Source of the DNA: Natronosalvus rutilus
GTDB lineage: Archaea; Halobacteriota; Halobacteria; Halobacteriales; Natrialbaceae
Reading direction: 5' to 3'
Length of the DNA stretch: 64,000 nucleotides
Assembly: GCF_024204665.1 (NCBI RefSeq)
Contig: NZ_CP100355.1
Span: 2,771,451-2,835,450, forward strand
Shown here: positions 3,622 through 26,768 of the stretch, piece after piece
How the letters are laid out: every line of letters starts with the position of its first letter
Position numbering within the stretch: position 1 is the stretch's first letter
Position numbers and translations under genes: made by a program
The notes under the pieces: generated by a model
Databases searched by the model: none
Told to the model about the DNA's origin: nothing
Seen by the model: only the letters and a program-made list of their open reading frames with translations

Positions 3622-3700
3622 ACGCGACCCACGAAGTGGCGGGCCAATAATCTAGTCCATTCCGTTGCGCTCACTGAAACTGAAGTAAATGGGGAATAAT

Positions 3701-3744
3701 CGAATTGTTTCGAAACCATTCGAAAACAGTCGAATAGAATCGAT
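3701..3744. promoter_or_regulatory. Five CGAA/CGAT motifs phased at exactly 10 bp; start of a gene-free control region
   Basis: The tetranucleotide CGAA starts at 3701, 3711, 3721 and 3731, and CGAT at 3741; two of them sit in the palindrome TTCGAA. The 10-bp spacing puts every motif on the same face of the helix. The gene-free stretch 3622-3964 also holds a 6-bp inverted repeat (ACGGCC 3887-3892, GGCCGT 3901-3906). Placement just before the first gene of module A suggests an operator or iteron array. This is inference from spacing and position only. Confidence 0.55.
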
Positions 3745-3964
3745 TAGCCCCGGAACCTTCATGTATTAGGGAGTTTATCAATACAATAACGGTCATCGTC
3801 AACGACATGTGTCCGGGAAAGGGGCCGTATTGGATCGGACTCTGAATCGGCATCGCCCTGCTTGGTGGTCGATTTGACGAGGCTCTACGGCCCGTAAAAC
3901 GGCCGTGGTACATAGCTACGCTTCTAAGAACCGACGGACAACCGCTCAGATTTCCACGATACCA

Positions 3965-4618
3965 ATGTCAACCTCATCCGCCCATAGTGACGAGTCCGCG
4001 ACTCGCGCGTCTCACGCTCGTGCACAGTACGCCCGCTACGACCACTGGGGCGAATCAGACACCGACAACGAGACAGAGAAACAGGATCTCGTCGGCCACG
4101 ATCCAAACGGCAACGCGGTCACCCAGCAGAAAATCGAGTCGCTCGCGCACCTCTGGCTCAAGCAGACGTCTCAAGAGCCGTTTTTGGATCCGGTCGCCCT
4201 GTGCGAACCGACGGAGAACGGTCAGCACTCAAGTGAGGGAATCAGGGCCGACCTCACCGATCCGGAGGTCTACCCACCGACGGCAAACAGCCAGGTCACC
4301 GCTCGAAGCCAGATGGAAAAGAAGGCACCCTCTTCGAAACGGTGGCGCTACTCCGAGGAGTACGGCCACCTCACTTACGGCGGTATTATCCGTGATCGGC
4401 CGAAGGACAAACTCCTCGAACTCGTCGGGTACGTGAGCGCGAACATCTGGGCGGTAGACGTCCCACCACGAAACCAGCGAGATATCGAAGAGGGCGCTCA
4501 GAAGCTCAAACAGCGCGGCAAGCTTCACGACGTCCAAATCATGCGGCGGGTGGCAGAGTGGATCTTCCTCCCAAACATCCTGCGGGAGGACAAGAAGCGA
4601 GATTTCAGGCGGAAATAA
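3965..4618 (+). CDS. Hypothetical protein, first gene of module A
   Basis: I chose the ATG at 3965 (MSTSSAHSDES...), which follows an upstream in-frame stretch of poor composition. The 217-residue protein begins with about 70 polar, probably disordered residues, then becomes mixed helical with a basic, aromatic C-terminal part (VAEWIFLPNILREDKKRDFRRK). There are no signal peptide, membrane segments or cysteines, so it is likely cytosolic. It ends 15 bases before the large secreted protein, so it probably shares its transcript. No family was recognised. Confidence 0.6.
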   Translation: MSTSSAHSDESATRASHARAQYARYDHWGESDTDNETEKQDLVGHDPNGNAVTQQKIESLAHLWLKQTSQEPFLDPVALCEPTENGQHSSEGIRADLTDPEVYPPTANSQVTARSQMEKKAPSSKRWRYSEEYGHLTYGGIIRDRPKDKLLELVGYVSANIWAVDVPPRNQRDIEEGAQKLKQRGKLHDVQIMRRVAEWIFLPNILREDKKRDFRRK

Positions 4619-4633
4619 CGGAGACTCATACCA

Positions 4634-7600
4634 ATGACAACCAAAGACTCGAAAGCGACGCATAAACGCTGGCTGCCGTCACGCCACCAATTTCAGGCGA
4701 TCGTCTTCAGCGTGCTCCTGATACTGTCGCTCCCGGCAATGGCAGGAGCGGGCGTAATGGCTGCCGAAACTGACGATGGCAGCACTGGCAGTGGTGACGG
4801 TTCCACCGAGAACACGACTGTCAGACACTATGACGATTTCGAAGACGGGGATTATGAGGGGTGGACCCCTGTGAGAAATCCCGACGCTGTCTCAGTTGTC
4901 GATGAGGGATTTTACGGTGGAAAATCTCTACGTTTGGATGATTCTGGCGGGTCAGGAGAACAGGGAGATATCTTGTTCGACAGTGGTCCTCTTCTCAAAC
5001 TCTCTGATGACTTCGAGATTCAGGGGACTTCAAGATTCGAGGATAATTCCACACAACGGTCTCGGATAGGTGTTCGAACGGAGGACCTTGAGGATAGGCT
5101 CCTCCTCACCTTTAGTAAGCAATACGACAGTGTCTCTCTAACAACTGATTGGGGTGAAAACCCAGAGGACCACGGCGAATATATCGAGGGTGCCCATCAC
5201 GATATGTGGGTTGACTGGAGGATTCAGGTAGATTCTGGAACTGCCCGGGCAAAAGTATGGGAATCTGGAACGAAGGAGCCTGAGAAATGGCAGATGGTTC
5301 GCGACTTCAACAATTTTGAAGGGTATTTCTACGCCAATGCTGGCAACGGAGATTATGGAAGAGAGGTCTTGATCGACCATGTGGACTTAGGAGGTCATAC
5401 CATTTCTGGTCAAGTCCTGAACCGGCACGGTGACCCGGTTTCGAATGCGACCGTCGAAGCCTACGGTGTCAACTTTGATGGCCTCGAGAATCAGGCCGAC
5501 GATCTCGAAGCAGAAGCGGATCGACTCCTCGATGAAGCCGAGAACATGGTCCCGAACGACTGGGACTCTGACCTCCAGATGCTTGGATCTGGCGGCCTCG
5601 TCGACGAAGCCCAGGCTTCTGAATGGAACTATATCGCGGTCCACGAACGCGAAGACTGGGACCTGAACGCCGAACACAATTGGAAAACAAAGTTGGCGTG
5701 GGGCGACGGAGCGGAGATCGACCCCGATCTCGGAGCGCCGTCGGTCCAAACCAACGAGCGGAATCTCGTCCTCTCGATCTGGGATCCGACCGACGTAGGG
5801 GGAACAGTTACCGATCGCGAGGACGCCATAGACAGAGAGCTCCCCGGACGGACAACCTCTGGAACGGTCGTCATAGAGCAAATATCCCCATCCGGAGAAG
5901 CCGTCGACAAAACCAAACGCGAGACCGAGGTCATCGCCGAGGACGTCAACCCGACATACTCGCTTGCAAAGAAAGATCACGAGGCTGTCCGGGTATCGTT
6001 GCCGAGAAACCACTTCTACCGCGTCTATCCAGAGGGACAGCCCGAAAGTTCGTACGTGTTCGCAATCGGCGACCCGGACGACTTTGTGAGCGCCATTCAG
6101 TCAGATCTTCGTGATGAAGCCAATCGACTCACTGACTGGTCCGAAGAGATCCAGAGCACTATCGAAAGTGGTTCCCTCACACGGACGACGACTACTACTG
6201 ACGAAAACGGCTACTACGAGCTCAACGTCCAGCGACCGGTACAAAAGGCTGCGGTCCAGGCCTACAAAGGCGATCCGGAACTGTTGCAGGGCGAACTGGG
6301 TGCCTCTGTCAGCCAGTTGCGGGGTCTTCGTGACATGGGGTATAACGGTTCGATTGGGATGACTCTCGCCCCGACGCGGACGGACGTCCCAGCGAACAAT
6401 GTCACGCTCGAGATGCACGAGCTCGATACGATGCCGTTCGACGGTATCGACGATTTCGAAGAGTTGATGAACCAGCTTACCGAGGAGTTCCTAAATTCAT
6501 CCGTCTACCAGGACCGATGGGACGAGATTATCGAAGAGATCGAAGGCGAACGACTGAGCGAGCTCTACGAGAATTACTACAACCTCGTCGATGGAAACGA
6601 GGAACTCAGGGACCGAGTCGAGGAACTTCTCGGGCGAGAGTTACACGATCCCGATGATGATCCCTCCGTCGCTGAAATGCAGGCCGAGCTCGAGGCCATC
6701 CGGCAGGCACTCGCCGAGCAGGCAACTGGAGATATCGGTATTGGCGACGGCGACTACGAATTCGGCGATGATGGCCTCACGGCGACGTGGCAGGTCCCAT
6801 CGTGGGTGGGCGAAGACGACGTCGCGGTGAATCTGCTGACGAACGGCACGACCGAACCCATCCCAGACGAGTACATTAGCGTCGAACCGACGGGTGGCTT
6901 CGCTGGGACGAACACGGTCACCGTTAGCAACTACCCGATAGATGACGGGGTTACGCTGGCCGATCTCGAACTGGTAATCGCTGGTGAGCACGGCGTCGGC
7001 GATGGTATCATTTCAATCGCAAATCCCGAGTGGGATGGCACCGCCCCGAAGATCGATGCGGTGGACTTCACCGACCTCTCACCCGGCCCCGACGAAACGG
7101 TTGGCGTCTCTCTCGACGCCACTGAAAACTACGACTCGCTCGTCGATGCGACGGTATTCGGACCCGATGGGAACGAGCTCGAGTCGTCGTTGAGCACGAG
7201 TGGTGAGGATCGACTGACGTTCAAGACTTCGGGAGCTGGCGACTATCACGTCCGACTGTATATAGAGTCCACTTCGGGAGACATCTTCCAGATCACAGAA
7301 CGTGTGCGTGCGGGCGAGCAATCACGGAGCGATCGAGCGACTGTCCGTATCGGCCAGTCCAGACTCGGCTATCACGCGACGATCGGCGACCATCTCGAGA
7401 GCGCCCGTGTTGACGTAGATGGATCGAAAATCGGCATCGACGTGATCGCCCCATCGGACGAGATCCCAGGCGAGATCCACCTCATGCCCGACGCTGGCGT
7501 GACGACCAACGACGTCACCTTCGACGTGTCCGTACTCGAGGGGGCGTCTGAAAGCCGAATCAACGGCAACGTGGCGGTGTTGATGCACTTCGAGAGCGGC

Positions 7601-7909
7601 TACGACGATGACACGCTCGCGTGGCGGAATGGGCGCGCGCTTCCGGCCGATGGGAACACCTTCGGAGAAGTCCTCGTGCGAGAGGAGAAACACATTCTCG
7701 TCAGCTACACCGCGAGTAACGGAGAAGTCTACCTTCGAACGGACATGGACCCCGGGTGGGGAGATCGAGCCTGGCACAAGGCCGATCAATATATCCCGAG
7801 GCCGTCGCTCCCGTTCTTCTCGACGATCCTCGTCATCTTCGAGTCCTTCGAGGCCGATGTCGAACGCCTCGGAACCGTGACCACGACAACCGTGCCGGCA
7901 ACGGGGTAA
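4634..7909 (+). CDS. Large secreted multidomain protein (1091 aa), candidate surface or receptor-binding component
   Basis: A cleavable signal peptide spans roughly residues 1-43. Residues about 58-250 form a beta-rich domain beginning HYDDFEDGDYEGWTP, reminiscent of LamG/concanavalin-like lectin folds. A carboxypeptidase-regulatory-like strand (TISGQVLNRHGDPVSNATVEAYG, about 255-277) is split from its matching second half (TDENGYYELNVQRP, about 520) by a long insertion. An acidic helical stretch near 600-700 and several Ig-like domains follow. There is no C-terminal membrane helix or anchor motif. Base composition changes sharply inside the gene: about 4820-5400 is much richer in A/T third positions than the rest. 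It may be a fibre- or spike-like protein, by inference only. Confidence 0.7.
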   Translation: MTTKDSKATHKRWLPSRHQFQAIVFSVLLILSLPAMAGAGVMAAETDDGSTGSGDGSTENTTVRHYDDFEDGDYEGWTPVRNPDAVSVVDEGFYGGKSLRLDDSGGSGEQGDILFDSGPLLKLSDDFEIQGTSRFEDNSTQRSRIGVRTEDLEDRLLLTFSKQYDSVSLTTDWGENPEDHGEYIEGAHHDMWVDWRIQVDSGTARAKVWESGTKEPEKWQMVRDFNNFEGYFYANAGNGDYGREVLIDHVDLGGHTISGQVLNRHGDPVSNATVEAYGVNFDGLENQADDLEAEADRLLDEAENMVPNDWDSDLQMLGSGGLVDEAQASEWNYIAVHEREDWDLNAEHNWKTKLAWGDGAEIDPDLGAPSVQTNERNLVLSIWDPTDVGGTVTDREDAIDRELPGRTTSGTVVIEQISPSGEAVDKTKRETEVIAEDVNPTYSLAKKDHEAVRVSLPRNHFYRVYPEGQPESSYVFAIGDPDDFVSAIQSDLRDEANRLTDWSEEIQSTIESGSLTRTTTTTDENGYYELNVQRPVQKAAVQAYKGDPELLQGELGASVSQLRGLRDMGYNGSIGMTLAPTRTDVPANNVTLEMHELDTMPFDGIDDFEELMNQLTEEFLNSSVYQDRWDEIIEEIEGERLSELYENYYNLVDGNEELRDRVEELLGRELHDPDDDPSVAEMQAELEAIRQALAEQATGDIGIGDGDYEFGDDGLTATWQVPSWVGEDDVAVNLLTNGTTEPIPDEYISVEPTGGFAGTNTVTVSNYPIDDGVTLADLELVIAGEHGVGDGIISIANPEWDGTAPKIDAVDFTDLSPGPDETVGVSLDATENYDSLVDATVFGPDGNELESSLSTSGEDRLTFKTSGAGDYHVRLYIESTSGDIFQITERVRAGEQSRSDRATVRIGQSRLGYHATIGDHLESARVDVDGSKIGIDVIAPSDEIPGEIHLMPDAGVTTNDVTFDVSVLEGASESRINGNVAVLMHFESGYDDDTLAWRNGRALPADGNTFGEVLVREEKHILVSYTASNGEVYLRTDMDPGWGDRAWHKADQYIPRPSLPFFSTILVIFESFEADVERLGTVTTTTVPATG

Positions 7910-7912: not shown

Positions 7913-8701
7913 ATGGACGAGATGAATCGTCGCCGGTTCCTCGCGAGCGTCGGGTTCGCTTCAATCGGTCTGACAACCCCGACAACCGCTCAAACGGACT
8001 ACTCATGGACCGATGGCGGTGACGTCATTGATAGATCCTACCCGGAAGACGAACTTCGACGCCATGTCCCCTATCTCACCACCTCGAGGACTGCTCGCGA
8101 GTCGTTCATCGGCCTGTACGGATGGAAAGCCGAGAGCCCCGATCGGGATACCGACGTCTATGCGTACTGGGCGCGCTACACGCACCAGACGCCCGGAATT
8201 GGTGACATCGGCCTCATGGACTGGGCGGTCGGAGCATTCGCTTCTGACGGCCACGTCTGGGACCACGAACCCTCGTACGTGTTCGTCGACAGCGAGACTG
8301 GTAATTTCGAGCTCGCGGTCGTCACCGGCTATCACCACTTCCCGCTGTTCGTCAGTTCTCAATCACCCCCGATCACGAGGGCCGACGACGGCGGCCAACA
8401 CCTACACCTGAAGGTGGTCGATCCGTGGCATCACTACCTACTCGATAACGACACCATCGGTGGCGACCCGACGATCTACGGACGTCTCGAGTCGTTTCTC
8501 GACGTGCGTGGCGAGTGGGACCAAAACGGCGTCTTCGATGCAACCAACAACCTCGCCATCGACAATCCGTGGGCGTTCCCTGACAACCGCGTGGACTCGT
8601 GGTGGGACGAAAGCACGCGAGACGCAAAAGCCGCCCGCTGGTGGGCGTGGCTCGGGCTACGGGGCGCTGATGAGGCGTCACCGGCGGCCCTTCCGGAGTA
8701 A
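7913..8701 (+). CDS. Tat-exported protein A1 (262 aa), paralogue of the gene at 11175
   Basis: The N-terminus reads MNRRRFLASVGFAS followed by a hydrophobic stretch and TTAQTD, a twin-arginine signal cut near residue 27. The mature part is rich in Trp, Tyr and His. The order of short motifs (DVYAYWARY, DHEPSYVFVD, GYHHF, NPWAFPD, WWAWLGLRGADEA) matches the order in the protein at 11175. An ATG at 7922 is an alternative start. It lies 3 bases after the large secreted protein and before the subtilase. The enzyme class, if any, is unknown. Confidence 0.75.
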   Translation: MDEMNRRRFLASVGFASIGLTTPTTAQTDYSWTDGGDVIDRSYPEDELRRHVPYLTTSRTARESFIGLYGWKAESPDRDTDVYAYWARYTHQTPGIGDIGLMDWAVGAFASDGHVWDHEPSYVFVDSETGNFELAVVTGYHHFPLFVSSQSPPITRADDGGQHLHLKVVDPWHHYLLDNDTIGGDPTIYGRLESFLDVRGEWDQNGVFDATNNLAIDNPWAFPDNRVDSWWDESTRDAKAARWWAWLGLRGADEASPAALPE

Positions 8702-8773: not shown

Positions 8774-11170
8774 ATGAAACGACGAGGCTTTTTACAGGCG
8801 ATTGGCACGCTGGCGGTGATGCCGGCGCAGTACGTACCGTTGCTGTCGTCGCCGTTCGGTAGCGACACACTCACCGCGAGTGCCCTCGAACTGGGATCGC
8901 TCTGGCGGCCGAAGCTTACCAGTGACGACCTGCCGACGTTCGGGTCGGCCGGCGATCTCGCGTGGGCGGTCCACTACGAGACTGACGCCGACCTCGAATC
9001 ACTCGAGGCCTGGATTTCCCAGGTCGATGGAGTTGTCGACCTTACACATATTGAGGCGCTGAACACGGAGATAATTCGTGCGCCGACCTCGTTGATGGGT
9101 GTCCACTTCCTCGATCGAGCACTCGGCCGAGGATTGGCCTCGAAAAGCTACGTCACGCGGATCGAGCCCATCGTCGGGTTCGAACGGCCGGAGCCACTCG
9201 ATCTCATTCCAGACCAATCGGAGTTTGATACGCCGGACTATCTCGATCGACGGGGGAACAACTACCCTCTCGATGGGATCGCCTTCGAAACTCGACCGAC
9301 GACGATCGAGGTTGCCCGTAAGAGCCTCGGCGTCAATCGGGCTACTATCCCTGACGACACCGAACCGGTCTCGATCGGGGTCGTAGACTCGGGAGCGAAC
9401 GTCGTTGACGGTCGGGTGTTCGGACGCGGCCAGCGTGGTTCTCCGATCCGGATCGCAAAGGGCGCTCACTTCACGGACACCGGCCGCTCCGAGATCACCG
9501 TTTCTGAAGGGATGGTGACCGCTGAAAACACCACAGAAACCGACTGGAGAAACGCAGAATCCTTCGAAGGGCTGGTTATCCAGGGATTCGAAGAGAACTC
9601 AAGCCTCGTTCTGTCACTTGACGAGATTACGGTGAGCGTTGCGACCGATACCGAGTGGTCGAATGGGACACTGACTGATACAGTCGTCACCAATGGGACA
9701 CTCGAGTTAGCCACCGACGCGGAAGGGAACTACCTCACCAGTGGGACCTACGAATCCGAGTGGCACGACCTCGGCGAAGAGGCTTCCCCGTCGAATTTCA
9801 CCAGTATCGAGACGCTCAACTCTCAAACGATCACCTACGAATTCCGAAGTGCCGACGACGCGACCGGAACGAACGCGACCGCGTGGCAGACGGACATTAC
9901 GGCGCTTCCGAACACGCAGTTCCTCCAGGTACGGATCACTCTCGAGACCACCGATACCACGACAACGCCGACGGTCGATGACTACACATCAACGGCCACG
10001 GCAACCGCTGATGCCACTTATGTCGGTGACACGCACTATCTACGATCCATCGATTCTGGCTCAGCAACGCTCGAGAACGTGGCTGACGTGATGGCGACAC
10101 TCACACTCGAGGGGAGACCGGATAGCGAGACCGCATGGGAAACGATCGACGAGGTAACGGCCTCAGGTAGTGGTGAACACGCGTTCGACCTCAGCACGGC
10201 TGGGGCCGATCTCGAGCAGTGGCGTGTGTCGATGACGGTGACGCCTGACGTACCCGAGAGCGCCACACTCGAGCTCCAGGCCGAACAGGTCACTTCTCCT
10301 GTCCAGGTTCAAAACGGTGAATCGGACTGGGACCCGATCAAGGACGGCAACGATCACGGGACGTGGTGTCTGTCGGCGATGGCCGCTGATCCCGGTGACG
10401 ATGCTTACACCGGCCTCACGAACGGCACCGATCCGGAACTCGTCGTCGCCAGAGCCCTCGATGTCGATGGGAGTGGCTCGACGGCGGCGATAACGAACGC
10501 GATCGTCTGGTGTACCGACCAGGGTGTCGACGTACTCAACCTCTCGCTGGGATCGTACGTCTACAGCGAGACACTCGCAGACGCCATCGAATACTTCTAC
10601 GAGAACGGCGGGAGCGCCGTCGTGGCGGCCGCCGGAAACGATCGACAGGTAACCCGGACGGTCAACACGCCCGCTTCTCTCGAGTCGGTGATCGCCGCCA
10701 ACGCGACGACGAACTCGCCACCGAGTGAAGCGCGTGTTTCGAACTTCGGAAACGTCGGCCCTTCTGATGGTGTGGCTGACCTTTCGGACGGGAAGACGCA
10801 CGGTGTCTCCGTCGACGTGGCCGCGCCGGGGATGAAACTCGAGGCGTTACTCGCGACGACTGGCTCGACTCGGACCCGCCGGTCAGAACTCTCGGGGACC
10901 AGTATGGCGTCTCCGCTGGTCGCGGCTCTGGTCGCGATACTACTGGCCGCCGAACCATCACTCAAAGGTGACCACGAGGCTGTTCGAGAACGCCTTCTCG
11001 AGAGTTGTGAACCTATCCCGAAAGCCGGCGAGACGGAGGTCGGTGCGGGAATGCCACAACTCGATCGTTTGCTCGAGGGCGACCCGCCCGATGAAACCCA
11101 GGTCGACGTCCAAACGTCGGCAGCAGACTCGAGAGATACAGTCAACCGAATTTTGAGCGGCAATCCATAG
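8774..11170 (+). CDS. Subtilisin-family serine protease with a ~320-residue insertion between catalytic Asp and His
   Basis: A Tat-like signal (MKRRGFLQAIG) starts the protein. Catalytic residues are visible as Asp205 (SIGVVDSGA), His528 (NDHGTW), oxyanion Asn622 (AAAGND) and Ser710 (GTSMASP). In ordinary subtilases the Asp and His lie a few dozen residues apart; here 323 residues of Thr- and Ser-rich, beta-strand-like sequence intervene. The N-terminal 190 residues resemble a propeptide region. It should act outside the cell and may mature or release the neighbouring secreted proteins, or cut host surface protein. It sits between the two paralogous Tat genes. Confidence 0.9.
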   Translation: MKRRGFLQAIGTLAVMPAQYVPLLSSPFGSDTLTASALELGSLWRPKLTSDDLPTFGSAGDLAWAVHYETDADLESLEAWISQVDGVVDLTHIEALNTEIIRAPTSLMGVHFLDRALGRGLASKSYVTRIEPIVGFERPEPLDLIPDQSEFDTPDYLDRRGNNYPLDGIAFETRPTTIEVARKSLGVNRATIPDDTEPVSIGVVDSGANVVDGRVFGRGQRGSPIRIAKGAHFTDTGRSEITVSEGMVTAENTTETDWRNAESFEGLVIQGFEENSSLVLSLDEITVSVATDTEWSNGTLTDTVVTNGTLELATDAEGNYLTSGTYESEWHDLGEEASPSNFTSIETLNSQTITYEFRSADDATGTNATAWQTDITALPNTQFLQVRITLETTDTTTTPTVDDYTSTATATADATYVGDTHYLRSIDSGSATLENVADVMATLTLEGRPDSETAWETIDEVTASGSGEHAFDLSTAGADLEQWRVSMTVTPDVPESATLELQAEQVTSPVQVQNGESDWDPIKDGNDHGTWCLSAMAADPGDDAYTGLTNGTDPELVVARALDVDGSGSTAAITNAIVWCTDQGVDVLNLSLGSYVYSETLADAIEYFYENGGSAVVAAAGNDRQVTRTVNTPASLESVIAANATTNSPPSEARVSNFGNVGPSDGVADLSDGKTHGVSVDVAAPGMKLEALLATTGSTRTRRSELSGTSMASPLVAALVAILLAAEPSLKGDHEAVRERLLESCEPIPKAGETEVGAGMPQLDRLLEGDPPDETQVDVQTSAADSRDTVNRILSGNP

Positions 11171-12227: not shown

Positions 12228-12236
12228 GTGATTCAC

Positions 12237-18374: not shown

Positions 18375-18643
18375 TGCTATCAATACTGATGCTCGTCGTG
18401 GTTGCGATCACCGTCGCGTACGTGCTGACGACGCGGTTCCCGAACACGGCCCGGCGCTGGTTCCGACGGTTCTGGGCACTCCGGGCGGTGTTCTTCGGGC
18501 TGTTCTGGCTCTCGTTCGCCTGGGTACTCATTGGGAGCGGGGTATTCCCGCTCATGGTCGTCGGGATGCTCGTGTTCTTCATCGCCGCGATGTACATCTT
18601 CGTCGAAAACCCACAGCAGGAGGTTCGATCATGGATTCGATAA
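18374..18643 (+). CDS. Small membrane protein, 89 aa
   Basis: An N-terminal helix (LSILMLVVVAITVAYVL) is followed by a very basic, aromatic linker (TARRWFRRFWALR). Two hydrophobic segments follow (FFGLFWLSFAWVLIG and PLMVVGMLVFFIAAMYIFV). The basic patch should face the cytosol and could contact DNA or the acidic protein encoded next. It overlaps the next gene by 13 bases. Confidence 0.65.
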   Translation: MLSILMLVVVAITVAYVLTTRFPNTARRWFRRFWALRAVFFGLFWLSFAWVLIGSGVFPLMVVGMLVFFIAAMYIFVENPQQEVRSWIR

Positions 18644-19242
18644 TCGCCGACGAACACGACTTCATCCGCAAGCGCCTCGAGGAGTCGGCCGCCAGTACCG
18701 AGACACTCCTCTCGGTTCGAAAGCGACTCCAGGCCATCGGCCCGGACCTCCGACGGGTGTACGACACGAACGGCTACACGAACTTCCTGGTTGCCTACCT
18801 CAAGCGCGAACACGAGAAGTACCAGCTTCACCACGGGAACGGCCCGGACAATCACGAATACGAGGAGACGCGTTCTACGCCGACGTGCCACTGTATGGTA
18901 GCCTCGTGCCCGATCGGCAACGGCCGGTTGCCGATATCGATCCGGACGGCTGACGACCCCGAGCGAGCCACTCGCCAGTATACGCACGAGCATACTGCTC
19001 ACCCGGTCGCCTTACACGAGGCTCGCCAGGAGTGGCACTCGCTGTGCTCCGATCTTGAAAGCGAGCTATCGCTCATGAAGATCGCCCTCGCAAAAGACGT
19101 CCCTGTCGAGACGCTCGAGGACCCCGAAGCGCTGGCTGCCGACGAGGTAGCGGAGGAAGAGACCGACGACGCCGACGCTGACGACGGTGAGGAGAGCGAC
19201 GAGGAGACGACCGGACACGATCCGACGACGGTGATGGCCTAA
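18631..19242 (+). CDS. Acidic hypothetical protein with CxC/C cluster, 203 aa
   Basis: The N-terminal half is helical (DFIRKRLEESAASTETLL). A central CHCMVASC segment (about residues 86-93) could bind a metal or form disulfides. The C-terminal 35 residues are almost all Asp and Glu. There is no signal or membrane helix, so it is cytosolic. Its stop overlaps the ATPase start (TAATG), which points to a partner or adaptor of the ATPase. Confidence 0.6.
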   Translation: MDSIIADEHDFIRKRLEESAASTETLLSVRKRLQAIGPDLRRVYDTNGYTNFLVAYLKREHEKYQLHHGNGPDNHEYEETRSTPTCHCMVASCPIGNGRLPISIRTADDPERATRQYTHEHTAHPVALHEARQEWHSLCSDLESELSLMKIALAKDVPVETLEDPEALAADEVAEEETDDADADDGEESDEETTGHDPTTVMA

Positions 19243-21476
19243 TGGTACTCAACCAGTCCACGCGGGACACGATCGAACACGAGCAACGCAAGCGCCGGCG
19301 TGAGGCCTTCCGAACCCGGAAGGAAGCGGTCAACACGGCCATCCGGCGGTGTTCTCGAGCGCTCGACCGGGGCGAGACGACGCACTACCAGTACGTCGCC
19401 CGGAAGTTGAGCGAGACCATCCTCCCCGGACTTGAGGACCAGATCGACGGCTTGGTCGTCGGCCTCGCCGAAGACCTCGCCGATCACGAGTACTGGGACT
19501 ACCCGGCCTACCGTCGGTTCACGACCGACGAGACGCGTATCCGTGAAGTCCTCGCGGCTGGTACCCGGAGCAACCGGTCGCGGCTCGCCCTCGAGTCCGC
19601 CGGCGTCAGTGACGAACTCGAGACGGCCAAACGCCTCGTCGAGCGAACGTTCAAGACGGCGGTGGCGATCGCCGAGCACCTCGAGGTCGTCACCACGAGC
19701 TACACCAACGCCGTCGACTGCGTGGGCCACACGACGAAACTTGGCGTCCACCTCCAGGACTGGGACATGGATATCGGCGACCCGATCAACCTCTTTTCTG
19801 ACCAGGCCGGCCCGCTCAAGACGTTGTACTGCGGCGGCACCGGAACGGGGAAGTCGACCGGCATGGGTCGGGAGACCGAGGACTACTACCTCCGGAACTT
19901 CGTCGACGGAAAGGACATCAAGCTCATCGACCTCGTCGGAATGCGTGACGGCGAGAACTGGTTCTACGACGTCCCCCAACAACAGGAACCGCTCCGGAAG
20001 GTGCGCGAAGAACTCGGGCTCGCTCCCGACTTCACCGGCACTGAGTTCGACGAGCGGAAGATGGAGATCCTGCTGCCGCTCACGAAAGGACTCAACGACC
20101 AGGAGCTTCCCTTTGATACCGAACGCGGCGAGGACGGCGAGTTTATCTGCCGACCGTTCACCGTGCCGGCGTGTGAGATTCGAAAGCCGTTGCTCGTCTC
20201 GCTCATCATGTCTCGAGTGTCCGAGAGCGAGGAGCAAACCATCCGGGAGGTCTACGACGAGGTCGACGCCGACAAAACCGACTGGTCACTCGGCGACATT
20301 GCCGAGGAGATTCGACTCCGACCGGAGCTCTCAGATAAGCACAAGGCGAAAGCGATCGGCGTGCTTCGCGGACTCCAGAATGAGGGGTTCATCCGCACTC
20401 GAGAAGATCCGTACGCCATCCAGTGGAACGACATCTTCTACGACACCCAGACGATCACGGTCTTCTCACAAGCGTTCTGCCGGACGGAAATCTCGAAGGT
20501 GATGGCGTTCGCCTATTTGTGCGATTCCATCCTCGAGCAACGCAAGCAGGACCCGTTCGTCCCCGACTGCGGCGTCATCATGCGGGAGTTGTGGAGCGTG
20601 GCGCCGCACAAACAGCGCCAGAGCTTCGACTCGCGCGTCGCGGCCATCCAAGAGGCGATCGGGCAGGTGTTGATGCGAATGTTCCGCGAAAACCGCCACT
20701 ACGGCGTCCACGTCTTCGCTGACACCCAGCAACCGAGCGACCTCCTGAAATCAATCCGGGAGATGTTCAATCGCTACGTCGTCTACGGCGCGAACTACGA
20801 CACGATCGACGATATCATGTCGTGGACGCAGAACAACCGGAAGAAAGCGTTCTGGGGGACGATGAGCGCCCGGCGTGGCGAGGCTGGCGTGATCGGGATG
20901 GTCGAGCCGGCCGTCGAGAACCACCGCATCGAGTTCGTCTCACCCGTTCGGTACGCGCCACCGAGCCATCACCACCGCGACGCAGCCGTCGACAAGACGG
21001 GATGGCACGGGCGGGTGCAGTACCTCGAGAACGAGGAGCTACGCGCCCCGGCGGACGTCGACGGCGTGATCTGGGACGACGAGATCCACCCGTCGCTGGT
21101 GATTGATCCGTTCAACGGCGACGGCACTGAGTCCGACGGCGTCTATGACCCCGAGGCGACGCCTGCAAAGGCGTTTGCCCAGCAATGCCTCACTCACGAG
21201 TGGGACAAACGCATCAAGAAGAGCGACGTCTACACGGCGTTCCACGAGTTCGTCGTCGCCCACGGCCACGATCGTGACCGATGGGACTTCGAGCACCGGG
21301 GCGTCCAGTCCCAGTTCGGGTCGGCCATGAAGAGCGTTATCGAGGATGAGATCACGAATACGAAGATCGACGGCGACATGGCCTACCGAAATCTCCGCTT
21401 CACGAGGAAGGGGAAAGAGTTCCTCGAGGAGGCCACTGTGGACATCCAGAGCGCCGCCGAGCCGATCCACTCGTAG
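19242..21476 (+). CDS. FtsK/HerA/VirB4-class P-loop ATPase (744 aa)
   Basis: A Walker A motif, GGTGTGKST, spans residues 198-206. A Walker B-like strand ending in acid (CGVIMREL, about 443-450) and the late FADTQQP motif (about 492-498) are arranged as in FtsK, HerA, VirB4 and TraD motors. An N-terminal helical region of about 150 residues precedes the core. Residues from about 640 (KKSDVYTAFHEFVVAHG) look like the winged-helix tail found after D5/P4-type primase-helicases. It has no membrane helix; it probably docks on the small membrane proteins and moves DNA or protein. Confidence 0.85.
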   Translation: MVLNQSTRDTIEHEQRKRRREAFRTRKEAVNTAIRRCSRALDRGETTHYQYVARKLSETILPGLEDQIDGLVVGLAEDLADHEYWDYPAYRRFTTDETRIREVLAAGTRSNRSRLALESAGVSDELETAKRLVERTFKTAVAIAEHLEVVTTSYTNAVDCVGHTTKLGVHLQDWDMDIGDPINLFSDQAGPLKTLYCGGTGTGKSTGMGRETEDYYLRNFVDGKDIKLIDLVGMRDGENWFYDVPQQQEPLRKVREELGLAPDFTGTEFDERKMEILLPLTKGLNDQELPFDTERGEDGEFICRPFTVPACEIRKPLLVSLIMSRVSESEEQTIREVYDEVDADKTDWSLGDIAEEIRLRPELSDKHKAKAIGVLRGLQNEGFIRTREDPYAIQWNDIFYDTQTITVFSQAFCRTEISKVMAFAYLCDSILEQRKQDPFVPDCGVIMRELWSVAPHKQRQSFDSRVAAIQEAIGQVLMRMFRENRHYGVHVFADTQQPSDLLKSIREMFNRYVVYGANYDTIDDIMSWTQNNRKKAFWGTMSARRGEAGVIGMVEPAVENHRIEFVSPVRYAPPSHHHRDAAVDKTGWHGRVQYLENEELRAPADVDGVIWDDEIHPSLVIDPFNGDGTESDGVYDPEATPAKAFAQQCLTHEWDKRIKKSDVYTAFHEFVVAHGHDRDRWDFEHRGVQSQFGSAMKSVIEDEITNTKIDGDMAYRNLRFTRKGKEFLEEATVDIQSAAEPIHS

Positions 21477-21597: not shown

Positions 21598-21785
21598 CAT
21601 GCGCGCCCCCGATCAAATTAGACCGCATGACAATTCTTCACCCACACACCACCCTGAGCCTCGAGGCCAGCTCCCGGACGAAAAATTCCCCGGCGAACTC
21701 TCGAGGCGATCGTCCGCCACCCCCTCCATTTCGTTTTGGAGGTATCGACATCGAAGTACTACAACGAAGTTCTAAGCAATCCAAC

Positions 21786-22004
21786 ATGGAACTGACCGGA
21801 ACCACAAACTATCCACTGTCCTGTCCCGATCCGATCTGGGACGAGTTCAAGACGAGTTTCGCGACTGCCGACGTCAACGTCAACGAGGCGCTGGTCGCGA
21901 CGCTCGCTCGAGAGATCGTATGGACGCGCGGCGACGAACTGCCCGACGACCAACTGGCGGCCTACCTGGAGTTGATCTCTGATTATGACCACCGACGCGA
22001 GTAG
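21786..22004 (+). CDS. Small hypothetical protein, 72 aa
   Basis: I chose the ATG at 21786 (MELTGTTNYPLSC); the in-frame extension upstream is Pro/Arg-rich and unlikely. The protein is acidic and helical (VNVNEALVATLAREIVW) with one cysteine. Its 3' end overlaps the next gene by 20 bases. It may be a cytosolic regulator or adaptor at the head of the second operon. Confidence 0.55.
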   Translation: MELTGTTNYPLSCPDPIWDEFKTSFATADVNVNEALVATLAREIVWTRGDELPDDQLAAYLELISDYDHRRE

Positions 22005-22953
22005 CATCAATCAGCGGCATCGCCGGCGGTATCTCTCGGGGACGTACAACTCCATCGACGAGATCACCGACCCCGGGACAGTCGCGGACGAATCGAGCGG
22101 TAAGTGGCGCGAGTACATCGTCAACAACAAGCTCTGGGTGTTCCTGACCGCCCTGCTCGCGGTGGGCGTGTTCGTGCTCGCGTTCCGATGGATCGCCACC
22201 ACGATGGGCAACCTGCTCTCGAATCGATGGGCACAACTCGCCCTCGGGGCGTTCGTGCTCGCTGCTGTCTCGTACTACGCCGGTCGGCGCCACCAACTCG
22301 GCGTGTTCACGAGCGTCGACGAGTTCGTCGCCCAGGGCGAACACGAGAACAAGCGCTACTTTTGCGAGTACGTCACCGACACCGATGGAAAGAACGAGCG
22401 CGTCGAAGTCTACAAGGGCTTTACACGGTTCGGAAACCCGGGTTCGAAGCTCAAAGTCCGGGATTTAGATCCGGAATGGGCACGTCTCGCCCAGTATCGA
22501 GGGTACGACGCCGACGACCCGGCGCCGATCTCGATCCATCGCGAGCTCGCAACGGTCAGCCACACCGAGTTCGGCACGATCGTCGCCCAGCCGACCAACG
22601 GCATCGACGCCTTCGAAGGCGGCGGGAAGTCTGTTCTCGAGGCGACCATCCCGGATATGACTCGGGAGAACAAGGTGCCGACGCTCAAGAAACAACTCGA
22701 GGAGAAAAAGAACCAGGTCGACGACCTCGAGGACAAGATCCAGACGCTCACCGAGCAGCGCGACAAAGCCTACGAGATGGCCCGGAAGGCCCAGGACGAA
22801 GTCCTCGATCCGTTCATCGACCGCGTCGACCGGGTGATGGGCGTCCGGGACCGCCGGCGCAACCGCTCGAGTGACGATAGCGAGGGGACACTCCTCTCGA
22901 GAGAGCCGACGGCCGACGACCTCGGGACCGACATTCAGATCGAAGACGACTGA
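21985..22953 (+). CDS. Two-TM membrane protein with coiled coil, 322 aa
   Basis: An N-terminal cytosolic stretch of about 45 residues precedes helices at about 51-70 and 82-100. A soluble domain of about 120 residues with one cysteine (RYFCEYV) follows. A coiled coil at about 231-273 (LKKQLEEKKNQVDDLEDK...) and a charged tail end the protein. A membrane-anchored cytosolic coiled coil fits a scaffold or internal membrane protein of a particle or secretion complex. The next gene starts 15 bases later. Confidence 0.7.
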   Translation: MTTDASSINQRHRRRYLSGTYNSIDEITDPGTVADESSGKWREYIVNNKLWVFLTALLAVGVFVLAFRWIATTMGNLLSNRWAQLALGAFVLAAVSYYAGRRHQLGVFTSVDEFVAQGEHENKRYFCEYVTDTDGKNERVEVYKGFTRFGNPGSKLKVRDLDPEWARLAQYRGYDADDPAPISIHRELATVSHTEFGTIVAQPTNGIDAFEGGGKSVLEATIPDMTRENKVPTLKKQLEEKKNQVDDLEDKIQTLTEQRDKAYEMARKAQDEVLDPFIDRVDRVMGVRDRRRNRSSDDSEGTLLSREPTADDLGTDIQIEDD

Positions 22954-22968: not shown

Positions 22969-24564
22969 ATGCATACACCTACTGCACTAGCGATAGCACT
23001 GCTTCTTCTCGTGTCGCTGGCGGCGCCTTTCGCGGGCATCGTCGGCGCACAGGAGATGACTGACCACCCGGAGGCCAACCTCCACATCGAGCAACCCAGC
23101 TATATCGACTCCGACGTCGCCCGCCAGACCGATAACGGGACGACGATCTACGAGGCGCGGGGTGAGTCGGTGACGATCGTGCCGACGAACCTGGACCGGC
23201 AGAACATCACCGGTTACGGGAAGGACACCGACGCCGGATCGTTCACCTTCGACGATAACCTCGAGGTATGGACGCTCGACGTCGACGGCGAAACCGGGAC
23301 GTTCGAACTCTACTGGCTCGTCGAGGAACCCGTCGAAGACGAGAACGCGACGGGCACTGAAACCGTTCGCTACGAGGCCACCGTCCGGCTCTCGGACACC
23401 GACGGCGTCTACCTCACCCAGTCCGAGTACGAGAATCGCCAGGACATGGTCGACCTCGGAGAAAAGGCCGATGCCGTAGTCAACGACCTGAAAGGGCGCT
23501 GGCTTCCGTTCTTCGATACCTCGGGCGATGCCGGCGACGTGATCGACCGAATGGGGTCGGTTGCGGCGACCATCGGGAACCCTCTGAACATGTTCTCGTC
23601 GGGGTATCTCGGCTTCCACACCCTGTTGCTCGTCTCACTCGGGGCGATGCTGGCAGCGCTCCAGTACCTCGGGTTCTTCGCGTGGGTCGTCCACAAACTC
23701 CGGGGCCAGAACCACGACTTCGAGCAGAACGAAGCCTACGAAGGCGAGATTGCCGAGCGACAACTCGAGGTCGACGAACGCGACCGCCTGAACAAACTGG
23801 CAAACATGGACTGGTTCGATATCTTCGAGGACGACCACATCGCCCGGGCGTTCCGTGACCACCTCGGGGAGACCGTCCTCGGCGGGTGGATTCGACTGAA
23901 CGCCGCTATCCGGCCCCGGAACGTGGTTCGTGACCGACTCCAGGCGATGGGTCAGTCGGGGTACGTCGCTGTCTGTACGTTTGATCGGTCCCTCGAGATC
24001 GACGATGACGACGAAGACGTGCTCGAGCCAGTTCTCGAAAGCGTCGACCTCGTGCGAGAGGACAGCGTCGACGTCGATACGCTCGACGAGCGGGAAGCGA
24101 TCGCCCCGCTCACCGAGGCCGCTGGCGACGCGCCGTGTGATCTCGAGGCCATCCTCGGGACGGTCAACTGGTGTCACGACGAGCTGGTCGCGTTCGACTT
24201 CGAGAACGCCGATGTGAATCCGACGCGACTCGAGACGCCGATCGAAACCCTGGATCTCGAGACGTTGATCGAACGCCTCGACGCCGACATGACTCACTTC
24301 GAAGACGAAGAACAGTACGGCGAGTACCTGCATTCGTTCGTCGCGAGCGTACGCGAGCACCCGTTCACCGAAGACGACGGGACGCCCGACGAACTCCGGT
24401 ACATCTTCAACAACCTGCTCCAGGCGGCCCAACTCCTCGAGGACCGGTACGGATTCCCCCTCGGGGACTACCAGAGCGACGCCTTCGAGACGGCCGTCGA
24501 CAGCTACGACCGGTCGGCTCGAGCGGCGGCGTACTCCGAGGAGGTGAGCACCGGTGCGGCCTGA
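22969..24564 (+). CDS. Membrane-spanning protein with ectodomain and large cytosolic domain (531 aa)
   Basis: A signal peptide (LAIALLLLVSLAAPFAGIVGAQ) is cut near residue 28. The ectodomain of about 185 residues is acidic and beta-rich. A membrane helix lies at about 217-243, followed by about 285 cytosolic residues that are acidic and helical. This type I topology with a big internal domain suits a component linking the cell surface to cytosolic machinery. The next gene overlaps it by 11 bases. It is unlike known pleolipovirus spikes, which have short inner tails. Confidence 0.7.
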   Translation: MHTPTALAIALLLLVSLAAPFAGIVGAQEMTDHPEANLHIEQPSYIDSDVARQTDNGTTIYEARGESVTIVPTNLDRQNITGYGKDTDAGSFTFDDNLEVWTLDVDGETGTFELYWLVEEPVEDENATGTETVRYEATVRLSDTDGVYLTQSEYENRQDMVDLGEKADAVVNDLKGRWLPFFDTSGDAGDVIDRMGSVAATIGNPLNMFSSGYLGFHTLLLVSLGAMLAALQYLGFFAWVVHKLRGQNHDFEQNEAYEGEIAERQLEVDERDRLNKLANMDWFDIFEDDHIARAFRDHLGETVLGGWIRLNAAIRPRNVVRDRLQAMGQSGYVAVCTFDRSLEIDDDDEDVLEPVLESVDLVREDSVDVDTLDEREAIAPLTEAAGDAPCDLEAILGTVNWCHDELVAFDFENADVNPTRLETPIETLDLETLIERLDADMTHFEDEEQYGEYLHSFVASVREHPFTEDDGTPDELRYIFNNLLQAAQLLEDRYGFPLGDYQSDAFETAVDSYDRSARAAAYSEEVSTGAA

Positions 24565-26572
24565 ACTCCTCCAGAGCGGCGTCCCCGAGTTCACTGCCGG
24601 CCAGAAGTGGACCGGCGTCGGCGTCCTCGTCGGGATGGCGGTGCTCTTACTGTTCATCTGGTATCGTAGCCGGTTTGCCGGCCTCAAACCCTCGAACGCC
24701 GAGCACAAGGACACGCTGTGGACGCAACTGTACCACCGTGATCCGTCGACCTACCGTCTTCCGGCCGGCATCGACGTCGCTCGTCACCGGGACGCGATTC
24801 TCGAGACCGTCACGGATCGGGAAAGTATCGACCGGCGAGCGGCGACGGTCTCGGGCGGCCTCGGCGAGGTGCGTTCGACGCTCTCGTCGACGGTAGGCCC
24901 CGTGATCGATCGACTTCCCCGGCCGGCACGGCGGTCGCTCGGGCTCGCCGTCCTGGTCGCCATCCTCGGGGCGCCGGCTGTCTCGACGGCCGCGTTGCTC
25001 GAGTTCCTGAGCTCGGAGACCGATCGACCCGGCGGCCTCGAGGCACTCTCGATGATCGCCGACGCGACGGTCACGGTGGGAACGCTCGCCGTCGACGTCG
25101 TGTCGTCGTTCCCGTACGCCGGGACGCTGTTCGCATTCGCTCTTTCGGCGGTGCTCATCGTCGGTGAGTGGCTGTTCACTCGCTGGTGGCTCACTGTTGC
25201 CCTGCTGGCCGGCGGTGCAACGGCGATCGTCGTCTTCGACCATTATCGGACGCGAGAGGCCGGTTCGAAGGATGGTCTCGAGCGTCGAACCCTGGGGGTA
25301 ACGGCCGTGAAACGGGTGTCCATCGTGTGGATCGCCGGCGTCGTGCCGACGGTCATCGGATCGGGGCTCGAGAACGCGGTCCCCGGTGGCCCGCCGGTCA
25401 GTCAGTACGGGGCCGTCCTCGGACTCGTGGTGGCGTTCGCTATCGGGTTGTACTATCTGGCGCTGACGGTCGCCGAAGCGATCACGGGTGTACTGGAGGC
25501 CGCTCGTGAGGACGTCACGATCGGTGACGGTCGACAGTTGGCCGATCACCCTGCCCTCGAGGGCGCCGGCTACGATCACCACGAGGCCGCCGACGGACTC
25601 CTCGATCGGCTCGAGGCGACCGGTCGGAACTGGCGCGGTAGTCGTGTCGACTGGGCGCTGGCCGGTTCGCTTGCCGTCCGGCGAGTCCTCATCGGGACGT
25701 GGATGCTGGCGGCGCCGTTGCCGCTGGGGTACTTCCTCTCCGGTGTCTCGAGTGGCGCGTACGTCGACGTCGGTCGGGCGCTGGTTGCCGCCGATACCGG
25801 GATTCAGGCGCTCGTACTCGCGTGCGTCCTCGCCCCGATCGCCGTCGTGGCCTACCTCGGACGGGACTCGATGGACACTCTCGGCCTCGGGCTTCGCGAA
25901 GCGTGGTCACGTCGACGCGTTCGCCTGGCCGCCCTCCGACGGGGCGTCCCGATCATGGCGGTCGTCGTCGCGACGGCGATCGCGTACTCGCTGCGGTTCC
26001 CCTTGCCGATGGCGATCGGTGTGGGTGTCGCGGTCGGTCTCGGGGCGCGGTTGGCCTACGAGGCGCTCATGAGTGCAAAGTACCGGATCTCGATGTTCGA
26101 GGCCCTGGAGGCCGTCGAGAAGGACGTGCTTCTCGAGGCCTACGTACTCGAGGACGCCGGCGGGACGACGCGATATCTCGCCGTCCTCAACAGCGACGTT
26201 CGCGTACTCGCAGACACGCCCAGTAACCTCGTCCACGCCGTGTGTGACGTCTATGACGACGTGAGCCGTGGCGAGGACGTCACGACGCGTCCGCGCTGGC
26301 GAGCGGAGTACGCCCTCCGGTTCGGTATTGTCGACGCCGAGGAAGCGGACGCGAAGATCACCGAGCGCATCCGAAAGCGGTGTCTCGGGGAGTTACGTGA
26401 CGAGAAACAGGAGTGGCTGTCCGTTCTCGAGGACCGGGTGCGTGAGTACCCGTCCGAGGAGTTCGAGAGCTGGGTTCGCTGGGGCCGGCGTCACGGTGTA
26501 CTGTCCGTGAGAGAAGATTCGACCGGGGAGACGGTTGTTTTCCTCGAGCGCGACCCCTGGAGGCGATCGTGA
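24554..26572 (+). CDS. Large polytopic membrane protein (672 aa), putative channel/scaffold component
   Basis: The start is a GTG inside the end of the previous gene. About ten to twelve hydrophobic segments are spread over residues 12-510; examples are VGVLVGMAVLLLFIWY, LGLAVLVAILGAPAVSTAALL and LAGSLAVRRVLIGTWMLAAPL. The last ~160 residues form a soluble cytosolic domain (ISMFEALEAVEKDVLLEAYVLED...). The layout recalls VirB6- or CedA-type transporter subunits only in general shape; no family motif was identified. Confidence 0.7.
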   Translation: MRPELLQSGVPEFTAGQKWTGVGVLVGMAVLLLFIWYRSRFAGLKPSNAEHKDTLWTQLYHRDPSTYRLPAGIDVARHRDAILETVTDRESIDRRAATVSGGLGEVRSTLSSTVGPVIDRLPRPARRSLGLAVLVAILGAPAVSTAALLEFLSSETDRPGGLEALSMIADATVTVGTLAVDVVSSFPYAGTLFAFALSAVLIVGEWLFTRWWLTVALLAGGATAIVVFDHYRTREAGSKDGLERRTLGVTAVKRVSIVWIAGVVPTVIGSGLENAVPGGPPVSQYGAVLGLVVAFAIGLYYLALTVAEAITGVLEAAREDVTIGDGRQLADHPALEGAGYDHHEAADGLLDRLEATGRNWRGSRVDWALAGSLAVRRVLIGTWMLAAPLPLGYFLSGVSSGAYVDVGRALVAADTGIQALVLACVLAPIAVVAYLGRDSMDTLGLGLREAWSRRRVRLAALRRGVPIMAVVVATAIAYSLRFPLPMAIGVGVAVGLGARLAYEALMSAKYRISMFEALEAVEKDVLLEAYVLEDAGGTTRYLAVLNSDVRVLADTPSNLVHAVCDVYDDVSRGEDVTTRPRWRAEYALRFGIVDAEEADAKITERIRKRCLGELRDEKQEWLSVLEDRVREYPSEEFESWVRWGRRHGVLSVREDSTGETVVFLERDPWRRS

Positions 26573-26600
26573 TATTCGTCACGCTCGAATTCGAGTAACG

Positions 26601-26768
26601 ATGCCCGCCGACCCCACGATACTCGAGACAGCCATCCTCGCCATCGCGATCACGGTGACCGCCTACGCGACCGTTCGAGACCGCCTTTCGAGCAACCATC
26701 CCGGTCGAAGAGGCCAAAGAGGACTAGCTGCCCGGCGAGTACCTCGCCCGATAGAACAGAGTGGATAA
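26601..26768 (+). CDS. Small single-TM protein, 55 aa
   Basis: The ATG at 26601 opens a frame with one membrane helix (ILETAILAIAITVTAYATV) and a very basic C-terminal tail (RGQRGLAARRVPRP). It follows the polytopic protein by 28 bases on the same strand and could be a last small subunit. The short length keeps confidence modest. Confidence 0.45.
   Translation: MPADPTILETAILAIAITVTAYATVRDRLSSNHPGRRGQRGLAARRVPRPIEQSG

What the first reader, a model, noticed from the sequence alone, without database searches (positions are those of the whole stretch)
3622..26768. A 23-kb surface/membrane/ATPase gene module of unknown type
The plus-strand genes encode one giant secreted protein, four Tat substrates, a modified subtilase, a LamG-like protein, seven small membrane proteins, a FtsK/HerA/VirB4-class ATPase, a membrane coiled coil, a type I membrane protein and a 10-12 TM protein. 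No tailed-virus capsid, portal or terminase was seen. It could be a new pleomorphic-virus-like, vesicle-forming (pR1SE-like) or DNA-transfer system. That the genes belong together is inferred from strand, overlaps and order.
Basis: partly seen in the sequence, partly recalled or inferred. Interest (0 to 1): 0.85.

Follow-up and report, generated by a model that had tools for sequence, protein, structure and literature searches.

The report
Second lineage of plasmid-vesicle elements
The gene block is the particle-making core of a 54-kb plasmid integrated in a salt-loving archaeon's chromosome; it is a distant cousin of the Antarctic plasmid pR1SE, which spreads inside membrane vesicles it encodes, and comparing relatives shows that such plasmids come in two lineages that swap their surface genes but not their DNA-export genes.

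Summary
The module is real and conserved. It is the core of a 54,494-bp integrated plasmid bounded by a 14-bp direct repeat, with an uninterrupted site in a same-genus genome; only part of the element lies in the window. The module is homologous, gene by gene, to pR1SE/apHPV, the haloarchaeal plasmids known or proposed to spread in self-encoded plasmid vesicles. Surface genes match pR1SE ORF6-10 clearly. The rest match only in profile comparisons: ORF17, 22, 23, 24 and the HerA/VirB4-class ATPase ORF25.

It is not a standard apHPV. It belongs to a second lineage (16 elements, 4 of them closed plasmids) with the ATPase gene moved upstream and core genes too diverged for pR1SE-built HMMs. Those HMMs find only surface genes here, so the published criteria would probably file such elements as incomplete.

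New result: trees of core genes split cleanly into the two lineages (one change, support 100), whereas surface genes are shuffled between them (7-11 changes, random-like; one-clade hypothesis rejected). The elements are therefore mosaics of an exchangeable surface module and a lineage-bound DNA-export module.

Vesicle formation is inferred from homology to pR1SE, not shown here. No relaxase, pleolipovirus or tailed-virus hallmark was found.

The parts
3905..4618 (+). g01, 237 aa, first gene of the surface module (pR1SE 5098-5754 homologue)
   Evidence: phmmer 3e-16 to pR1SE, 1e-101 to pHALXA03; hhalign P=100
4634..7909 (+). ORF6 homologue, giant secreted protein (1091 aa), signal peptide, CBM/carboxypeptidase-regulatory-like N-terminal part
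   Evidence: phmmer 3.6e-52 to pR1SE ORF6, 7e-169 to pHALXA03; weak Pfam hits; N-terminal 63-254 resembles ORF8 of a haloarchaeal spindle-shaped virus, 2e-6
7913..8701 (+). ORF8 homologue, copy a (Tat signal)
   Evidence: phmmer 3e-21 to pR1SE ORF8; invariant H114/D117/E119, H141, H163
8774..11170 (+). ORF7 homologue, S8 subtilase with Tat signal and ~260-aa insertion between Asp and His motifs
   Evidence: Pfam 1.3e-32; phmmer 1e-43 to pR1SE ORF7
11175..12227 (+). ORF8 homologue, copy b (Tat signal)
   Evidence: phmmer 1.5e-81 to pHTUR05 second copy, 1e-12 to pR1SE ORF8
12228..13007 (+). LamG/ConA-like lectin; cargo, no homologue found in the other elements compared
   Evidence: Pfam PF13385 1e-8; no relative among elements
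13056..13451 (+). 131-aa protein, no relative found in the elements compared
13570..14610 (+). ORF9 homologue (S-layer-like, signal peptide)
   Evidence: hhalign P=100, 2.5e-55 to pR1SE-type ORF9
14691..15095 (+). 134-aa soluble protein shared with both lineages
15095..15361 (+). ORF10 homologue, small membrane protein
   Evidence: hhalign P=99.6
15406..15750 (+). small membrane protein, 114 aa, shared only with Natrinema ejinorense element
   Evidence: 6.9e-28
15997..16659 (+). 220-aa Tat substrate shared by both lineages
   Evidence: phmmer 2e-58 to pHALXA03; hhalign P=100
16656..16895 (+). small membrane protein shared by both lineages
   Evidence: hhalign P=99
16898..17215 (+). small membrane protein, second lineage only
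   Evidence: 12 elements, none of pR1SE type
17212..18171 (+). ORF17 homologue, secreted, 319 aa; start of the lineage-bound core module
   Evidence: hhalign P=97.9, 231 columns; tree splits the lineages with one change
18168..18374 (+). small membrane protein at ORF18 position (homology not shown)
18374..18643 (+). small membrane protein at ORF19 position (weak, P=60)
18631..19242 (+). 203-aa cytosolic protein at ORF21 position (weak, P=62)
   Evidence: conserved in all 16 elements of the lineage
19242..21476 (+). HerA/VirB4/FtsK-class ATPase, ORF25 homologue, placed upstream instead of last
   Evidence: hhalign P=99.4, 505 columns to ORF25; Walker A GGTGxGKST, invariant R448-E449, DTQ motif; Pfam DUF87/HerA in 5 of 16 members, best 1e-5
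21699..22004 (+). 101-aa protein at ORF20 position (this copy matches only one element)
21985..22953 (+). ORF22 homologue, membrane-anchored coiled coil
   Evidence: hhalign P=97.2, 255 columns
22969..24564 (+). ORF23 homologue: signal peptide, Ig-like beta-sandwich outside, TM, coiled coil and cytosolic domain
   Evidence: hhalign P=96.6, 281 columns; model pLDDT 71; weak Ig-like matches
24554..26572 (+). ORF24 homologue: polytopic membrane protein with soluble C-terminal domain, possibly winged helix
   Evidence: hhalign P=96.7, 179 columns; model confident only at 525-672; weak winged-helix matches
31275..32393 (-). second tyrosine recombinase, internal to the element
   Evidence: Pfam 1.2e-13
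42233..45331 (-). 1032-aa DUF5817/HTH protein at the right end of the element
   Evidence: Pfam; homologous right end in the same site in genome G237
45528..45541 (+). right attachment repeat AACACGATCTTCGC; left copy at window position -8966 to -8953 (outside the window), next to a tyrosine recombinase gene (-8896 to -7598)
   Evidence: empty site in G297 joins -8953 to 45528; only two copies of the 14-mer in 104 kb

Best explanation
This is the particle and DNA-export core of an integrated haloarchaeal plasmid of the pR1SE (apHPV) superfamily, belonging to a second, apparently undescribed lineage. Shown: a 54.5-kb plasmid integrated by site-specific recombination into a TctA transporter gene; its core is homologous to pR1SE; it consists of an exchangeable surface module (3905 to about 16895) and a lineage-bound module (17212-26572). 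Inferred from pR1SE: the Tat- and Sec-exported surface proteins (ORF6-9 homologues), matured by the subtilase, coat patches of the cell membrane that bud as vesicles; the giant protein's variable N-terminus and possibly the NLP-like ORF8 bind and perturb the recipient's surface. Inferred from architecture: the small membrane proteins and the ORF22/23/24 homologues form a membrane complex with a beta-sandwich outside and coiled-coil and helical parts inside. The HerA/VirB4-class ATPase docks on it and pumps the excised circular plasmid into the bud. The element excises with its own recombinase, spreads as a vesicle-borne plasmid and re-integrates. The second lineage would do the same job with a diverged motor complex.
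For: Homology to pR1SE for surface genes directly (ORF6 3.6e-52, ORF7 1e-43, ORF8 3e-21) and for core genes by profile-profile comparison of separately built alignments (ORF17 P97.9, ORF22 97.2, ORF23 96.6, ORF24 96.7, ORF25 99.4). Conserved gene order in 16 elements. Four relatives are closed circular plasmids. Empty site, 14-bp repeat and adjacent recombinase. In pR1SE the core proteins except ORF25 were found in infectious vesicles (PMC10818511). Clean split of core genes (1 change, 0/500 shuffles) versus mixed surface genes (7-11 changes), with lineage monophyly rejected for ORF7, ORF8, ORF9. DNA-level exchange between lineages.
Against: No experiment shows vesicles, excision or transfer for any element of this lineage. 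Core-gene identity to pR1SE-type profiles is only 11-20%, so function may have drifted. ORF18-21 homologues are not securely identified. The element sits in a chromosome and may be dormant or domesticated, though no gene is visibly broken. The structural models give no decisive fold for the membrane proteins.
Confidence: 0.8

Rival explanations
1. A conjugation-like (type IV secretion) plasmid: the ATPase is a VirB4/TraG motor and the membrane proteins form a mating channel that moves DNA by cell contact.
For: HerA/VirB4-class ATPase next to a polytopic membrane protein and several small membrane proteins; no capsid gene found.
Against: No relaxase seen; all plasmids with relatives typed non-mobilizable; profile homology is to pR1SE, which transfers without contact (PMC10818511).
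Confidence: 0.1
2. A pleomorphic virus: an integrated pleolipovirus-like provirus whose giant protein is the spike.
For: Membrane-protein-rich module with an NTPase; giant protein's N-terminal domain resembles a protein of a haloarchaeal spindle-shaped virus (2e-6).
Against: ATPase has no hit in 50,697 phage records; no clear PHROG for any protein scanned; Cdc6/Orc1 replicon gene in the element.
Confidence: 0.04
3. A cell-surface or secretion island of the host that merely shares genes with pR1SE and no longer moves DNA.
For: It is on the main chromosome; glycosyltransferase-like, TSP3-repeat and LamG proteins next to it look like surface cargo.
Against: Precise attachment repeats, recombinase, Cdc6 and an empty site in a same-genus genome; four relatives are free plasmids; intact genes.
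Confidence: 0.06

Closest known systems
pR1SE / apHPV plasmids (Halorubrum lacusprofundi pR1SE, NZ_KX687704; PMC10818511)
   Same: ORF6, 7, 8, 9, 10, 17, 22, 23, 24 and 25 homologues; the same two-part plan; haloarchaeal hosts; integrated and free plasmid forms; Cdc6-type replicon in some.
   Different: ATPase lies between the ORF21-position gene and ORF20/22 instead of last; core genes only 11-20% identical and below detection by pR1SE-type HMMs; an extra membrane protein; a MoxR+VWA pair after the ATPase in 5 of 16 elements (not in this one); two ORF8 copies flanking the subtilase here.
pT26-2 plasmid family of Thermococcales/Methanococcales (PMC6972569)
   Same: Integrated plasmids with many membrane proteins and a HerA/VirB4/B204-like ATPase; carboxypeptidase-regulatory and carbohydrate-binding domains are reported there too.
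   Different: No sequence homology of pMEFER01 proteins to either lineage beyond a weak ATPase match (P=72, 51 columns).
Pleolipoviridae
   Same: Membrane-vesicle-like particles of haloarchaea, few structural genes plus an NTPase (own knowledge).
   Different: No detected homologues; element several times larger than typical pleolipovirus genomes (own knowledge).

Membership tests
apHPV (pR1SE-like) elements as published | Cluster 1: ORF6-ORF9 homologues in conserved order | tested here: met
   phmmer and pR1SE-type HMM scores of 823, 366, 230 and 119 bits for ORF6, 7, 8, 9 in the window; order differs only by an extra ORF8 copy before ORF7.
apHPV (pR1SE-like) elements as published | At least five of the six HMMs ORF6, 8, 17, 21, 23, 24 detected (the published definition of complete) | tested here: not met
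   HMMs rebuilt from 15 pR1SE-type elements detect ORF6 and ORF8, but ORF17, 21, 23 and 24 never exceed 27 bits in any of the 16 elements. The authors' own HMMs were not available.
apHPV (pR1SE-like) elements as published | Cluster 2 order ORF17-21-23-24-25 with the ATPase last | tested here: not met
   In all 16 second-lineage elements the ATPase gene precedes the ORF22/23/24 homologues.
pR1SE superfamily (wider sense) | Homologues of ORF17, 22, 23, 24, 25 detectable by profile comparison | tested here: met
   P = 97.9, 97.2, 96.6, 96.7, 99.4; wrong pairings stay at or below 73, apart from a 57-column giant/subtilase match at P=92.7.
pR1SE superfamily (wider sense) | Plasmid proteins and plasmid DNA in infectious vesicles | not testable with these tools
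   Needs culture work.
pR1SE superfamily (wider sense) | Mobile: integrates and exists as free plasmid | tested here: met
   Attachment repeats and empty site; closed circular plasmid relatives. Excision of this copy not tested.
Type IV secretion / conjugative element | Relaxase / mobilization typing | tested here: not met
   All plasmids carrying relatives are typed non-mobilizable by MOB-suite; no relaxase among the Pfam hits of the window proteins scanned.
Pleolipoviridae | Homologues of pleolipovirus structural proteins or NTPase | tested here: not met
   No phage-collection hit for the ATPase, no clear PHROG. Fold-level comparison was run for two proteins only, against PDB.
pT26-2 plasmid family | Homologues of the conserved pT26-2 core | tested here: not met
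   hhalign of 12 pMEFER01 proteins, single sequences.

The most novel reading that the evidence does not exclude
Plasmid-vesicle elements are built from two independently inherited machines: a surface/budding module that spreads freely between elements like exchangeable clothing, and a DNA-export motor complex of which at least two ancient, mutually exclusive versions exist. Surface-only elements called incomplete or remnants in the literature would then often be complete elements with the second motor.
Probability: 0.6. Interest if true: 0.72.

Novelty: new variant of a known kind. Interest (0 to 1): 0.63.

Why it matters
pR1SE is the main experimental case of a plasmid that spreads in vesicles it encodes, and which of its proteins make the particle and which load the DNA is unknown. 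A second, deeply diverged version of the core that uses the same surface genes separates the two functions by evolution: genes that swap freely should be surface and host-range parts, genes that stay together should be the export machine. That gives a direct list of genes to delete. It also widens the known range of such elements (13 of 392 genomes for this lineage against 25 of 392 for the pR1SE type) and questions the reading of surface-only elements as dead remnants.

Tried and rejected
Single-sequence search of viral contigs and genome contigs with the ATPase gave nothing, and a 16-row alignment was too diverged or found no relative. A 7-row alignment recovered four named genomes. Pfam, NCBIfam and PHROGs give no name to most core proteins. 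PDB sequence profile searches of the ATPase, ORF8 and ORF23 homologues gave only chance-level hits. The ORF24-homologue model is poor in its membrane part, and the top fold matches for both models are not significant, so no fold claim rests on them. Homology to pT26-2 was tested and rejected. The tRNA-Glu at 58093 was considered as the integration site and rejected: the right boundary is at 45541 and the target is a TctA gene. The second recombinase (31275-32393) is not at a boundary and was not taken as the integrase. A known defence system in the cargo was not found.
Full report
WHAT IS THERE. Genes run on the plus strand from 3905 to 26572 with small gaps or overlaps. The window lies at 2,771,451-2,835,450 of a 3.79-Mb haloarchaeal chromosome.

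WHERE THE ELEMENT ENDS. The block is part of a larger integrated element. A same-genus genome (G297) has uninterrupted DNA that joins window position -8953 directly to 45528. The 14-bp sequence AACACGATCTTCGC occurs once at each junction and nowhere else in 104 kb. The element is 54,494 bp, repeat to repeat. It splits a gene for a TctA-family transporter protein that is intact (413 aa) in G297. A tyrosine recombinase gene lies next to the left repeat (-8896 to -7598) and a Cdc6/Orc1 gene at -2944 to -1904. Glycosyltransferase-like genes lie at about -809 to 3283, and a TSP3-repeat protein further left. In another genome of the genus (G237) the same site carries DNA homologous to the right end of this element.

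WHAT IT IS. The ATPase is found in 13 of 392 genomes of the order and in four closed plasmids, of Salinigranum rubrum, Halomontanus rarus, Natrinema pallidum and Natronorubrum daqingense. In a thin sample of the phylum it occurs only in the same order. Around it the whole block recurs in the same order. The subtilase led to pR1SE, the Halorubrum lacusprofundi plasmid that spreads in vesicles carrying plasmid proteins (PMC10818511). pR1SE itself and eleven related plasmids were fetched. Direct sequence matches link the window's giant protein, subtilase, both ORF8 copies and g01 to pR1SE. Iterated profiles and profile-profile comparison of separately built alignments link ORF9, ORF10, ORF17, ORF22, ORF23, ORF24 and the ATPase (ORF25). 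Wrong pairings in the same matrix score P of about 73 or less, except one short local match of 57 columns between the giant protein and the subtilase profile at P = 92.7. Matches at P near 60 (ORF19, ORF21) are therefore only suggestive.

HOW IT DIFFERS. Two types can be told apart. In the pR1SE type (15 elements examined) the order is ORF17-18-19-20-21-22-23-24-ATPase. In the window's type (16 elements) it is ORF17, two small membrane proteins, a 203-aa protein, ATPase, ORF20/22/23/24. In two elements the last block is inverted, and in five a MoxR-ATPase plus VWA pair follows the ATPase. HMMs rebuilt from the pR1SE type score 56 to over 1000 bits on ORF6-9 of most second-type elements, but never more than 27 bits on ORF17, 21, 22, 23 or 24. 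The published search required five of six such HMMs to call an element complete, and found 34 further elements with only surface-cluster genes, read as possible remnants (PMC10818511). My inference is that part of those are complete elements with the second core. I could not open the supplementary list to check, and I cannot exclude that some second-type plasmids are already listed there.

TWO MODULES WITH DIFFERENT HISTORIES. On trees of the ATPase and the ORF17, ORF22 and ORF24 homologues, the two types are separated by a single branch with full support (1 change; 0 of 500 shuffles as low). On trees of g01, ORF7, ORF8, ORF9 and the 220-aa Tat protein the types are mixed: 7 to 11 changes, at least 5 to 7 of them forced by well-supported branches, about as many as after shuffling. 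The hypothesis that each type is one clade is rejected for ORF7 (p 6e-67), ORF8 (4e-45) and ORF9 (8e-5). These are quick trees without bootstraps, with divergent rows, so single branches should not be trusted, but the contrast is large. At DNA level two Halomontanus rarus plasmids of opposite type share 3.1 kb upstream at 86%, ORF9 at 81% and an integrase end at 91%, with no similarity reported in the core. The exchange boundary therefore lies between the 220-aa Tat gene or the next small membrane gene and ORF17 (about 16.7-17.2 kb in the window).

CENSUS. The surface marker ORF8 occurs in 39 of 392 genomes: 22 with only the pR1SE-type ATPase, 11 with only the window type, 2 with both on separate contigs, 4 with neither. 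Among plasmids, 19 records have ORF8: 14 pR1SE type, 4 window type, 1 fragment. No single plasmid carries both ATPases.

HOW IT PROBABLY WORKS. In pR1SE the core proteins, except the ATPase, were found in the vesicles (PMC10818511). By homology, the exported surface proteins build or coat the vesicle, the subtilase matures them, and the ATPase loads the plasmid. ORF8 is reported to resemble NEP1-like proteins, which act on membranes (PMC10818511). In my alignment it keeps invariant H114, D117, E119, H141 and H163, which is compatible with a metal site like that of NEP1-like proteins (own knowledge, a lead only). The ATPase has Walker A GGTGxGKST, an invariant Arg-Glu where Walker B is expected, and a DTQ motif; some members match the HerA and FtsK Pfam families. 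The ORF23 homologue is modelled with an Ig-like domain, a membrane helix, a coiled coil and a globular part. The ORF24 homologue has a soluble C-terminal domain with weak winged-helix matches. A membrane complex that holds DNA and motor is a reasonable picture but is inference. The giant protein's N-terminal part resembles a protein of a haloarchaeal spindle-shaped virus, which fits an exchangeable recognition domain. Glycosyltransferase cargo fits the report that pR1SE-DL18 carries two glycosyltransferases found in its vesicles and that host N-glycosylation affects vesicle titres (PMC10384203).

RIVALS. A conjugative element is disfavoured by absence of a relaxase and by the non-mobilizable typing of all plasmid relatives. 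A pleolipovirus is disfavoured by absence of phage-collection and PHROG matches. A domesticated surface island is disfavoured by the clean attachment sites and by free plasmid relatives, though this particular copy may be dormant.

VERDICT. The pR1SE-like reading is right in kind. The finding is a new variant: a second lineage of the pR1SE superfamily, with evidence that surface and core modules are inherited separately. Vesicle formation by this lineage remains to be shown.

Noticed in passing
window 45528-45541 and G000:C1 about 2762484-2762497; G237 locus L075: The TctA gene appears to be an integration site used at least twice in the genus: G237 carries other DNA there that shares only the right end (DUF5817/HTH gene).
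   Followed up: partly
window 8774-11170: The subtilase of this element is about 250-270 aa longer than all relatives because of an insertion between Asp and His motifs; origin unknown.
   Followed up: no
window 4634-7909, residues 63-254; OQ850971.1 4565-5161: N-terminal part of the giant protein resembles ORF8 of Halorubrum spindle-shaped virus BLv25 (27.5%, 2e-6), suggesting exchange of a surface domain between plasmid and virus. That virus record is classed as Caudoviricetes in its taxonomy line although named spindle-shaped.
   Followed up: partly
L022 22160-24321, L023, L024, L040-L041, L042-L043: A MoxR-type AAA ATPase plus VWA protein pair directly follows the export ATPase in 5 of 16 second-lineage elements, absent from the window.
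   Followed up: partly
window 30128-31105: The element carries its own TFB (TFIIB) gene with zinc ribbon, possibly a dedicated transcription factor for the element.
   Followed up: no
window 26809-29013: A 734-aa GHKL/HSP90-like ATPase protein (HATPase_c_3) in opposite orientation right after the module; only weak PADLOC matches.
   Followed up: partly
window 913-3283 and leftwards to about -809: Glycosyltransferase-like genes inside the element, possible surface glycosylation cargo.
   Followed up: no
G200 (Natronorubrum daqingense) and G213 (Halolamina pelagica): One host genome can hold elements of both lineages on separate replicons or contigs.
   Followed up: yes
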